Assembly (NCBI GenBank): GCA_017468055.1
Contig: JAFUJU010000009.1
Coordinates: 1 to 64,000, forward strand
Origin: Elusimicrobiaceae bacterium
Lineage (GTDB): Bacteria; Elusimicrobiota; Elusimicrobia; Elusimicrobiales; Elusimicrobiaceae
DNA: 64,000 nt
Direction of reading: 5' to 3'
Below the pieces are notes generated by a model. The model was not told the DNA's origin and did not search any database. It saw only the letters and a program-made list of their open reading frames with translations. Below, in pieces: positions 4,393 to 42,893 of the stretch (positions within the stretch are counted from its first letter, which is position 1; every line of letters starts with the position of its first letter). The position numbers were made by a program, and so were the translations under genes.

Positions 4393-4926
4393 TTAATCAG
4401 AAAAAGCGTAGAGTTTGTAATTATTCACGCTCTTCTCAAACACACCACCCATAGAAGTGCAAACTTTTTCCGCCGTAACATCATTATCATAAGCCACGCA
4501 CTGCTTTGTTCCCATTTTTTCTTTAGGCAAAAAAGTAATAATATATCCGTTTCCACCGTTATTGGTGCCGCTTCCGTTTCTGTTTCTGCAATACATGTTT
4601 ATCGCTGTTTCACTAGAAACATAAATATAACAGGCATAATTATCTGCGTGAATTACATGGCCACTATCTACCCCTTCCGAATCACCTGCTATCTGAATAT
4701 CCAAATCGTCAAAGGTTTTTGCATACTCTCCATTTGCCATATAATATACCTGTTGAGCTTTCCAAAGCGCTTCGGCACTCGTCATCAGCTGTACATATTT
4801 TGCTTTGGCCACGGCCACCTGATATTTGGGTAACGCCACCGCAGAAAGGATACCAATAATCAGCACCACCACCAATAGTTCTATTAACGTAAAACCGTCA
4901 GATTTGCGCCACACAAAGTTTTTCAT
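4393..4926 (-). CDS. Type IV prepilin-like protein 1
   Basis: This 177-residue protein has a short positively charged leader and the prepilin peptidase site (SDG then FTLIELL), followed by the hydrophobic assembly helix [16 protein letters not shown]. Mature protein would start at Phe with Glu at position 5. It shares the segment [15 protein letters not shown] with the two other prepilins in this window (27819, 42151), but its C-terminal half is unrelated apart from cysteines that could form the usual disulfide loop. Such proteins are processed by PilD and assemble into pili or secretion pseudopili; no assembly genes lie nearby. It is expressed alone from the promoter at 4966-4993. The leader is longer than in the other two copies (MKNFVWRKSDG). 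Confidence 0.92.
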   Translation of the reverse strand: MKNFVWRKSDGFTLIELLVVVLIIGILSAVALPKYQVAVAKAKYVQLMTSAEALWKAQQVYYMANGEYAKTFDDLDIQIAGDSEGVDSGHVIHADNYACYIYVSSETAINMYCRNRNGSGTNNGGNGYIITFLPKEKMGTKQCVAYDNDVTAEKVCTSMGGVFEKSVNNYKLYAFSD

Positions 4927-4965
4927 ACCTGTTCTCCTTTTTTCTTCAATTTTCCGAACAGGAAA

Positions 4966-4993
4966 ATTGTAGCAAAAAAAAAAAACAAGTCAA
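4966..4993 (-). promoter_or_regulatory. Prepilin 1 promoter with 12-base A/T homopolymer spacer
   Basis: On the minus strand, -35 TTGACT (4993-4988), a 16-base spacer and -10 TACAAT (4971-4966). The spacer contains a run of exactly 12 T on that strand (4985-4974). The same arrangement precedes prepilins 2 and 3. Confidence 0.8.
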
Positions 4994-26898: not shown

Positions 26899-27834
26899 AT
26901 GAAAAGTAACCTCCCTATCGTTTTTATTACAGCAGGCGATCCGTTGGGCATCGGCCCGGAAGTAACCGTGAAAGCTCTGCAAGATAAGCGGGTCCGTCAG
27001 TCCTGCGTTCCCGTGGTTTTTGGGGAGCCGGCATCTTTACAAAAAGCAGGTTTTTCAACCGATTTGGCCGCTCTAATTCCGATAGAATCTCTTTCCGCCA
27101 AGCCTACCGAAGTGGCCCCCAGCAAATGGGGAGGGGAGATTTCTTTCAAAGCCTTGCAGCTGGCCTGTAAACTGGCGAAAGAAAAAAATGCCCCCGTTAT
27201 CACCGCCCCGATTTCCAAACAAAGTTGGGCCAAGGCCGGTATACAATTTACAGGCCATACTGAGTTTTTACGTACCTATTACGGGAAAACAGCCCTTATG
27301 ATGTTTGTCAGCGGAAATCTGCGCTGCGGATTGGTCAGTGAGCATTTTTCTATCAAAGATTTACCCCGTATTGTGACCCAAACCCGCATCGTACAAGCAG
27401 GGAAAGATTTTGAGAATGCCTTAAGAAAGTTAGGGATCAAAAATCCACACATAGCTCTTAGTGCACTAAACCCGCACGGCGGAGATAACGGAAAATTCGG
27501 TATAGAAGAAAGCTCCGTCATTTCCCCCGCCATCAAAGCTTTGCAAAAAGTTCACATTCACACTGAGGGACCTTATCCCATTGATTCTTTGTGGAGCAAA
27601 CACATACAAGGAAAGTTTGACGGTATTTTATGCATGTATCATGACCAGGCTTTATTGGGGCTTAAGCTGGCCGCCAGAGAGCCTATTATTCACCTCACCG
27701 CAGGCTTAGATATTTTACGCGTTTCCCCCACCCACGGCACTGCCTTTGACATTGCCGGTCAAAATTTAGCCGACCCAGCCAGCATGATTGCCGCCATTTT
27801 GTTTGCCGCTACGCAATATCAATCAAGATTATAA
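26899..27834 (+). CDS. pdxA: 4-hydroxythreonine-4-phosphate dehydrogenase PdxA
   Basis: This 312-residue enzyme is of the PdxA family. It oxidises 4-phosphooxy-threonine in the DXP-dependent route to pyridoxal phosphate. Signature segments are ITAGDPLGIGPEV (usually GDPAGIGPE), the three metal-binding His regions FTGHTEFL, MYHDQALL and SPTHGTAFDIAG, and ALNPHGGDNG. No other vitamin B6 gene is in the window, so a role in another pathway, as for PdxA2-type enzymes, cannot be excluded. ATG 26899 gives the conserved N-terminus. The 3' end overlaps the convergent prepilin 2 gene by 16 bases. Confidence 0.92.
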   Translation: MKSNLPIVFITAGDPLGIGPEVTVKALQDKRVRQSCVPVVFGEPASLQKAGFSTDLAALIPIESLSAKPTEVAPSKWGGEISFKALQLACKLAKEKNAPVITAPISKQSWAKAGIQFTGHTEFLRTYYGKTALMMFVSGNLRCGLVSEHFSIKDLPRIVTQTRIVQAGKDFENALRKLGIKNPHIALSALNPHGGDNGKFGIEESSVISPAIKALQKVHIHTEGPYPIDSLWSKHIQGKFDGILCMYHDQALLGLKLAAREPIIHLTAGLDILRVSPTHGTAFDIAGQNLADPASMIAAILFAATQYQSRL

Positions 27835-28328
27835 AAGGTACAACCCGTTGAGCTCGTATAAGAGCTTTTTGGATTCATAGATTTGCAAATTTTATCGGCA
27901 TTGGATTGCCCCGCCACAGGTGCGTTACAAGCACCACACGAATTCTTCGTTCCTTCTTTTACAGCATATTCTATATAAATGGAGCTTCCGTCTCCTAATT
28001 TCATAATTCCCTGAGTATGTTGGACAGAACTTGTATGATGAAAGTGAATTTTTCCACAAATCGCTACTTGCAAATATGGATTTCCTACCTCTGTAATCGT
28101 ACAATTACCGGGTAAAGAAATATCTAAATCATCAAAGGAAGTGGCATATTCTCCATTGGCCATATAATAAAGTTTTTGCGCATCTGCTAAAGCGCGGGCA
28201 ATAGGCATCATGGTAGATACTCTGCTTTTTTCTACTGCGCGGGTATATTGCGGTAGTGCTACAGCGGACAAAATACCGATGATTAACACAACTACTAATA
28301 ATTCTATCAATGTAAAACCTTTTTTCAT
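27819..28328 (-). CDS. Type IV prepilin-like protein 2
   Basis: This 169-residue protein has the leader MKKG cut before FTLIELL and the assembly helix [18 protein letters not shown]. The shared middle segment reads [20 protein letters not shown]. The C-terminal half is unlike the other copies apart from spaced cysteines (including NSCGACNAPV). It is a single-gene unit on the minus strand with its own promoter (28402-28429), a 5' leader that closely resembles that of prepilin 3, and an AAGGAGAG ribosome site. It has no terminator of its own before the convergent pdxA gene. Confidence 0.92.
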   Translation of the reverse strand: MKKGFTLIELLVVVLIIGILSAVALPQYTRAVEKSRVSTMMPIARALADAQKLYYMANGEYATSFDDLDISLPGNCTITEVGNPYLQVAICGKIHFHHTSSVQHTQGIMKLGDGSSIYIEYAVKEGTKNSCGACNAPVAGQSNADKICKSMNPKSSYTSSTGCTFYNLD

Positions 28329-28401
28329 TTTTCTCTCCTTTTACACGGTTTTAAGACCCAACAAACGGCACTTAATACTGGAGTCTGACCACAACGCTGA
28401 A

Positions 28402-28429
28402 ATTGTAGCAAAAAAAAAAAACAAGTCAA
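28402..28429 (-). promoter_or_regulatory. Prepilin 2 promoter with 12-base A/T homopolymer spacer
   Basis: On the minus strand, -35 TTGACT (28429-28424), a 16-base spacer and -10 TACAAT (28407-28402). The spacer carries exactly 12 T (28421-28410 on that strand). Confidence 0.8.
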
Positions 28430-28621
28430 GAGGTAGCGCACTTCACCGACAGAAAACAACCAATAAACAAAAAGTGGATTTTTCCTCTTGTCTTCATTGC
28501 GCAGTGCTTCTGCGCGCAATACGATGTGGGTTTCTGTTTAGCAAAACCGGAAAATTCTTTATCTCCAAAACTTAATAACAAATACGCTGTGTTTTTACCT
28601 GCTTTTTTTCTCCTAATTTGA

Positions 28622-42150: not shown

Positions 42151-42669
42151 TTACGGCAAACGATAGTAAGTATAGAAAGAACTGTTCTCTGAGTTATTTG
42201 CTCCCGAGCGGTCTTCCACTCCGCCCAAAGCTTTACAAATATCTTTACCTGCTGACTTTCCCCCCTCCTCCGCAGATGAGGCTAAACAAAAATGACCATT
42301 GTTATTAATTACATAAAAGGCATACTCCCAATTTGCATATCTTTGGTCCCTACACCGTGTATAAAAACGGTCAGAAAGAGTTGTGCACTGAAATTTATCG
42401 GTAGAATATGTAATACCACGATCAGCATAAACTTCCCAAGTACCGCCACCAGGTAAAGAAATGTCCAAAGCATCTCCGTCTTTGGCATATTCTCCGTTAG
42501 CCATATAATAGATTCTCTGGGCATCGGCAATTGCTTTTGCCAACACCATGCCTTGCGTAAAACGTGCTTTTCCAACCGCTTTTTGGTATTGCGGCAAGGC
42601 TACGGCGGATAAGATACCGATGATTAACACCACTACTAATAGTTCTATCAATGTAAAACCTTTTTTCAT
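42151..42669 (-). CDS. Type IV prepilin-like protein 3
   Basis: This 172-residue protein has MKKG before FTLIELL and the same assembly helix as prepilins 1 and 2. The shared middle segment reads [20 protein letters not shown]. Cysteines in [17 protein letters not shown] and [10 protein letters not shown] could form the disulfide loop; the C-terminal half is otherwise different from the other two. It is a single-gene unit with the promoter at 42743-42770 and an AAGGAGAG ribosome site. No pilus assembly ATPase, platform or prepilin peptidase is in the window. Confidence 0.92.
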
Positions 42670-42742
42670 TTTTCTCTCCTTTTATACGGCTTTAAGGCCC
42701 AACAAACAACACATAAGACTTAAGTCTAAGGGCGACCCCGAA

Positions 42743-42770
42743 ATTGTAGCAAAAAAAAAAAACGTGTCAA
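42743..42770 (-). promoter_or_regulatory. Prepilin 3 promoter with 12-base A/T homopolymer spacer
   Basis: On the minus strand, -35 TTGACA (consensus, 42770-42765), a 16-base spacer and -10 TACAAT (42748-42743). The spacer holds exactly 12 T (42762-42751 on that strand). The sequence on both sides resembles that around 28402-28429. Confidence 0.85.
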
Positions 42771-42893
42771 GAGGAAACGCACTTTCCCTACAAAAAACGG
42801 CCAACAAAAAACAGCTCTCCTCTGCTCATTCCGCAAAGTTTTTGTAAAGATAGTATAACGGCAAAAAGGCTTAAATTTGGAAAAGGGTTGAAC

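What the first reader, a model, noticed from the sequence alone, without database searches (positions are those of the whole stretch)
42743..42770. Three prepilin promoters carry an identical 12-base homopolymer between -35 and -10
At 4966-4993, 28402-28429 and 42743-42770 the minus strand reads TTGAC(T/A), 16 bases, TACAAT, with exactly 12 consecutive T in the spacer each time. Homopolymers of this length slip during replication, and one-base changes would move the spacer between 16, 17 and 18, which changes promoter strength. This is the known mechanism of phase-variable promoters in other surface-structure genes. Having it on three separate pilin genes suggests combinatorial on/off switching of pilins. 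A bent or rigid A-tract needed for constant expression is the alternative.
Basis: partly seen in the sequence, partly recalled or inferred. Interest (0 to 1): 0.7.

Follow-up and report, generated by a model that had tools for sequence, protein, structure and literature searches.

The report
Twelve-T spacer in pilin promoters
In a group of uncultured gut bacteria, about 80 scattered pilus-protein genes in one genome share a promoter with a run of exactly 12 T's between its two recognition boxes; the run's length is held nearly constant between gene copies and between species, which suggests a fixed structural part of the promoter rather than a random on/off switch.

Summary
Three prepilin promoters on the minus strand read TTGAC(T/A)-16-TACAAT with a pure T12 in the spacer, and these are the only homopolymers of 9 or more in the window. 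It extends far beyond three genes. The assembly (an Elusimicrobiaceae MAG, 1.32 Mb) holds 80 such promoters. At least 75 lie directly upstream of type IV pilin genes. About 96% of all T10 windows in the genome sit in them. The architecture recurs in most species of the genus and in a second genus of the family, and in none of 215 sampled Elusimicrobiota outside that family.

Phase variation was tested where possible. T12 is the state at 182 of 228 promoters in four species, although -35 tails, -10 letters and flanks differ. Of 17 syntenic orthologue pairs at ~11% divergence, 12 have identical length. That implies ~1-3 fixed length changes per per-site substitution, far below hypermutable tracts. 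Tract interiors are pure (0 of 682 positions changed in this genome). MutS is present.

Best reading: a conserved poly-T, extended -10 promoter marking a pilin regulon, with spacer length under stabilising selection. Slippage by one T occurs at ~20% of loci, so within-population switching is not excluded; that needs reads.

The parts
4966..4993 (-). Promoter 1: -35 TTGACT (4988-4993), 16-base spacer with T12 (4974-4985), extended -10 TGC-TACAAT (-10 hexamer 4966-4971)
4393..4926 (-). Prepilin gene 1 (177 aa, N_methyl PF07963)
4947..4969 (-). 9-bp inverted repeat CAATTTTCC-TGTTC-GGAAAATTG overlapping the -10 of promoter 1; imperfectly extended by the T-tract and a downstream A-run
   Evidence: read; DNA fold z = -3.96
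28402..28429 (-). Promoter 2: -35 TTGACT (28424-28429), T12 (28410-28421), -10 TACAAT (28402-28407)
27819..28328 (-). Prepilin gene 2 (169 aa, N_methyl PF07963)
42743..42770 (-). Promoter 3: -35 TTGACA (42765-42770), T12 (42751-42762), -10 TACAAT (42743-42748)
42151..42669 (-). Prepilin gene 3 (172 aa, N_methyl PF07963; nearest solved relatives are Neisseria PilE/PilA pilins, over the N-terminal half)
42771..42800 (-). Conserved box just upstream of the -35 (consensus about TTTTCCGTCGGGAAAGTGCGCTACCTC), shared by most promoters of this genome's main class

Best explanation
The 12-T run is a conserved structural element of one promoter type that drives a large dispersed family of type IV pilin genes (a pilin regulon) in Elusimicrobiaceae. 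The promoter is sigma70-like: TTGAC-type -35, 16-base spacer that is mostly T12, TGn extended -10. Shown by sequence: the architecture, its near-exclusive link to pilin genes, its tract purity, and the near-constant length across paralogues and species. Inferred: the pure T-tract works as a stiff, slightly overtwisted A-tract that sets the orientation of -35 and -10 for RNA polymerase; length 12 is near the optimum and variants are removed over time by selection; all members share one expression programme; slippage is a tolerated side effect rather than the purpose.
For: 80 promoters in this genome, 0 in the reversed control; 75 directly upstream of pilins and 3 cut by contig ends (two of them inside a known pilin leader class). 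Of T8+ promoters fetched from three sister species, 21/21, 63/63 and 55/59 precede pilins. Spacer-agnostic search TTGAC-N14-18-TACAAT found no interrupted pilin promoter here (compared with pilin positions). 0 of 682 tract-interior positions substituted while leader positions vary freely. T12 at 182/228 promoters in four species. 12 of 17 syntenic orthologue pairs equal in length at ~0.12 substitutions/site; a length-change rate 100 times the per-site substitution rate would give this with P ~2e-8. T12 kept with different -35 tails (TTGACTCG, TTGATTTG, TTGACGCG, TTGAATCG, TTGACCCG) and -10s (TACAAT, TAAATT, TACACT, TATTCT). Length deviants are rarer with the consensus TTGACA (6/47) than TTGACT (12/33), P = 0.016. 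Spacer sequence affects promoter strength up to ~10-fold in E. coli (PMC8695583).
Against: No transcription data. In the second genus the tract is 14-16 T and TTGAC lies 15-20 bases from the -10 (G085), so an exact 16-base spacing is not universal. Some species carry 8-10 T (spacer 12-14) before intact pilin ORFs, which could be OFF alleles. Three interrupted tracts exist in G016. The twist argument is only my estimate, and one model finds spacer sequence weaker than spacer length (PMC9303308).
Confidence: 0.6

Rival explanations
1. Phase-variable promoters: slippage of T12 to 11 or 13 changes the spacer and switches each pilin on or off, giving combinatorial pilus variants; T12 is the default ON state seen in consensus assemblies.
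For: Pure 12-base homopolymers are slippage-prone in general; lengths of 8-15 occur, with ~20-25% of loci off 12; near-identical paralogues L150 and L153 differ 13 versus 12; short tracts precede intact ORFs. Promoter-tract phase variation is known in fim2/fim3/fimX of Bordetella (PMC1891110) and sabA of H. pylori (PMC4081817).
Against: Length distribution is tight with the same mode in many species; orthologue turnover is ~1-3 per per-site substitution; MutS is present in all 21 genomes checked; one-base spacer changes give graded effects in E. coli.
Confidence: 0.2
2. The T-tract is read by a dedicated protein (an alternative sigma factor, or a regulator binding the spacer or the dyad just upstream) and marks the regulon.
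For: Almost every long T run in the genome is in these promoters; an upstream box TTTTCCGTCGGGAAA is conserved in this genome; palindromes overlap the -10 in many members.
Against: The upstream box is not shared by most other species, while the T-tract is; hexamers look like ordinary sigma70; no regulator was identified.
Confidence: 0.15
3. Passive copying: T12 is the same everywhere only because the pilin cassettes duplicated or were converted recently.
For: Pilin 5' regions are similar, and within-species promoter letters are homogeneous.
Against: Leader and third-codon positions are strongly diverged among paralogues while the tract is not; distinct leader classes share the promoter; T12 persists between species with different flanking letters.
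Confidence: 0.07
4. Assembly or sequencing artefact of homopolymer length.
For: All genomes are draft assemblies and break at pilin repeats.
Against: The same length mode appears in dozens of independent assemblies, while another genus shows 14-16.
Confidence: 0.02

Closest known systems
sigma70 extended -10 promoters of E. coli and relatives
   Same: TTGAC-type -35, TGn-TANNNT, 16-base spacer within the working range (PMC8695583)
   Different: Spacer is an almost pure T12, conserved across ~80 copies and many species; ordinary spacers are rarely conserved
Bordetella fim2/fim3/fimX C-stretch promoters
   Same: Homopolymer in promoters of fimbrial subunit genes; length affects transcription (PMC1891110)
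   Different: C not T, few genes, and polymorphic within species; here one length dominates ~80 loci
Helicobacter pylori sabA promoter T-tract rheostat
   Same: T-tract whose length changes promoter output in steps; extended -10 present (PMC4081817)
   Different: Tract lies next to the -35, ranges T5-T22 among strains, and H. pylori lacks mismatch repair; here it is inside the spacer, near-fixed at 12, with MutS present
Type IV pilins (PilE/PilA)
   Same: N_methyl motif and N-terminal similarity to solved pilins
   Different: About 100 dispersed paralogues in a 1.3 Mb genome

Membership tests
sigma70 extended -10 promoter | -35 near TTGACA and -10 near TATAAT with TGn | tested here: met
   TTGAC fixed, TACAAT fixed, TGn in nearly all copies
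sigma70 extended -10 promoter | Spacer 15-19 bases | tested here: met
   16 in 62 of 80 copies, 15 in 11, 17 in 5
sigma70 extended -10 promoter | Mapped transcription start | not testable with these tools
   no expression data held
Phase-variable promoter (simple sequence repeat contingency locus) | Repeat tract placed to alter promoter geometry | tested here: met
Phase-variable promoter (simple sequence repeat contingency locus) | Tract length highly polymorphic between close relatives | tested here: not met
   12 of 17 orthologue pairs identical; 182/228 at T12; one species (G008) is more variable
Phase-variable promoter (simple sequence repeat contingency locus) | Length variants coexist in one population | not testable with these tools
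   no reads held; one genome per species
Phase-variable promoter (simple sequence repeat contingency locus) | Reversible expression change with length | not testable with these tools
   needs reporters
Type IV pilin family | Prepilin N_methyl motif (PF07963) | tested here: met
   (three window genes); 106 matches in the genome

The most novel reading that the evidence does not exclude
Each of ~80 pilin promoters slips independently within a population, with T12 as the usual ON state, making an exceptionally large promoter-based combinatorial phase-variation repertoire for pili, in uncultured gut bacteria.
Probability: 0.18. Interest if true: 0.85.

Novelty: new variant of a known kind. Interest (0 to 1): 0.58.

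Why it matters
A gene-family-specific promoter whose spacer is an invariant homopolymer is unusual: homopolymers are expected to drift or to be used as switches. Here ~80 copies per genome, in dozens of species, form a natural experiment on why selection would keep a mutable sequence pure and at one length. It bears on how spacer DNA structure sets promoter strength and how about 100 pilins are co-regulated, and it warns against reading every promoter homopolymer as phase variation. A simple pattern search finds the pilin regulon in such a genome.

Tried and rejected
Passive recent duplication: rejected because leaders and third-codon positions are diverged while the tract is pure and T12 persists between species. 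A general property of the phylum: rejected, 0 hits in the 215 sampled genomes outside the family. Loss of mismatch repair: MutS found in all 21 genomes checked. Ascertainment by my own pattern: a spacer-agnostic search in the same genome gave no interrupted pilin promoter; a pilin-anchored search in 14 other genomes found a few interrupted ones, in G016. Pseudogene decay as the cause of short tracts: only a few cases fit (L191 lacks an ATG; L125 is truncated), most short-tract pilins are intact. A first anchored pattern (ATGAAAAAAGG) was too narrow. Two script outputs of pilin counts were superseded because the motif was too strict. Papers on Elusimicrobia pili gave nothing on these promoters.

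Full report
Observation. The three sites are exactly as described: minus strand, TTGAC(T/A), 16 bases, TACAAT, with 12 consecutive T. The reading that fits best is -35 TTGACT or TTGACA, spacer TG-T12-GC or CG-T12-GC, and an extended -10 (TGC-TACAAT). The downstream genes carry the prepilin N_methyl motif, and the third resembles Neisseria PilE/PilA over its N-terminal half. These are the only A/T runs of 9 or more in the 64 kb, whereas a Markov model expects about 12 such runs and 0.7 of 12 or more.

Scale in the genome. The window lies in a 1.32 Mb draft genome. Relatives found by the pilin sequence are almost all Elusimicrobiaceae/Elusimicrobiales MAGs, many of them from animal guts. The pattern occurs 80 times in this genome, with no match to the reversed control. 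75 copies have a pilin start directly downstream, and 3 more run into contig ends, two of them inside a leader known from other copies. Of the two others, one precedes a small lipoprotein-like ORF (L152) and one precedes no clear ORF (L145). The genome has 106 N_methyl matches. In the DNA held, 81 of 99 distinct pilin N-termini have a T run of 8 or more upstream; the 15 without one include an operon-like cluster of divergent, probably minor pilins. All 84 distinct T runs of 10 or more in the held DNA follow TTGA and precede a -10-like element, and they account for 247 of the 258 T10 windows in the genome.

Tract purity and length. T counts over the 80 are 12 (61), 11 (12), 13 (5), 10 (1) and 14 (1); total length is 28 in 62. 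In the 62 copies of length 28 the eleven interior tract positions show no substitution (0 of 682), while leader positions fall to 40-60% consensus and third-codon positions vary freely. A search blind to spacer sequence found the same promoters and no interrupted pilin version in this genome. Interrupted versions are rare in other species (three in G016).

Other species. With a looser pattern 72 of 90 family genomes have matches, up to 111 per genome, against near-zero reversed controls. A stricter T12+ pattern over 294 phylum genomes hits 55, all in two genera of this family, and none of the 215 sampled genomes outside it. The letters beside the tract and the -10 differ by species (for example TTGATTTG-T12-GATAAATT, TTGACCCG-T12-CTTACAAT, TTGACGCG-T12-GATATTCT), but 12 stays the mode. 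In a second genus (G085) the tract is 14-16 T with TTGAC 15-20 bases from the -10, so the exact spacing is not universal.

Test of phase variation. I fetched promoters from three sister species: T12 in 14/21, 52/63 and 52/59, and of these sets 21/21, 63/63 and 55/59 precede pilins, the remainder being mostly at contig ends. Orthologues supported by both flanks are equal in length in 8/9 (G013-G063), 2/2 (G008-G013) and 2/6 (G008-G063) pairs. At about 0.12 substitutions per site this fits 1-3 fixed length changes per per-site substitution; rates of 100-fold or more are excluded unless selection restores length. A review places M. tuberculosis homopolymer indels at 100-fold and most phase-variable repeats about ten-fold above that (PMC11868660). 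The contrast with sabA (T5-T22 among 51 strains, PMC4081817) is clear. MutS is present in all genomes checked. The data therefore favour stabilising selection on length. They do not exclude minority length variants inside populations, because only consensus assemblies are held.

Mechanism. The inferred role is structural. A pure T/A tract is stiff and slightly overtwisted. My estimate is 569 degrees for a 16-base spacer with T12, between 549 (16 bp) and 583 (17 bp) of ordinary B-DNA, so T12 may align -35 and -10 well. Spacer sequence alone changes strength up to about ten-fold in E. coli, and 15-19 bp spacers all express (PMC8695583), so one T more or less is expected to tune rather than switch. 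Length deviants are commoner with TTGACT than with TTGACA (P = 0.016), a weak sign that tolerance depends on promoter strength.

Side findings. Many members carry a long inverted repeat across the -10: arms of 10 or more in 13/81 here, but 16/21, 44/63 and 49/58 in the sister species, with none of that length in shuffled controls. In sister species the ATG sits in the loop, about six bases after the -10, which suggests leaderless mRNAs, and most arm positions pair in over 85% of distinct sequences. In this genome the only variable letter of the -10 extension is in most copies matched by its complement in the other arm (GCT/AGC, GGT/ACC, GTT/AAC; L011 and L024 do not fit). This could reflect cruciform or hairpin formation, an operator, or template-switch mutation; it was not resolved. 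The T12 also occurs without the repeat, so it is a separate feature.

Limits. No reads, no expression, one genome per species; paralogue alignments near contig ends may be affected by repeats.

Noticed in passing
L297, L310, L352 and similar loci (G008, G013, G063), across the -10: Long palindrome TTTTTTGATAAATTTTGGC-TATG-ACCAAAATTTATCAAAAAA spanning T-tract, -10 and start codon, with the ATG in the loop; pilin mRNAs probably leaderless.
   Followed up: partly
L009, L020, L026, L161, L166, L175 (this genome), T-tract to ribosome-binding site: Inverted repeats whose arms covary at the variable promoter letter (GCT/AGC, GGT/ACC, GTT/AAC); window promoter 1 has a shorter form at 4947-4969.
   Followed up: partly
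window 42771-42800, 28430-28460 and most loci: Conserved box TTTTCCGTCGGGAAA(GTGCGCTACC)TC just upstream of the -35, partly dyad-symmetric; candidate regulator site limited to this genome and close relatives.
   Followed up: partly
window about 28340-28360 and 42680-42705 (leader RNA): Short leader hairpin GGCCTTAAAGCC versus GGTCTTAAAACC with a paired change between copies.
   Followed up: no
G008 versus G013 pilin loci: Several pairs share 93-99% identity downstream of the promoter but unrelated sequence upstream, as if pilin repeats were rearrangement or misassembly points.
   Followed up: no
L152 (G000:C38:50749-50775): The same T-tract promoter (11 T) drives a small lipoprotein-like gene rather than a pilin.
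   Followed up: partly
L191 (G000:C75, near 7131): Pilin with an 8-T promoter and ATG changed to ATA: probable decaying copy.
   Followed up: partly
G085 promoters: Second genus uses 14-16 T with TTGAC at two preferred distances (totals 27-28 or 31-32), unlike the fixed 28 here.
   Followed up: no
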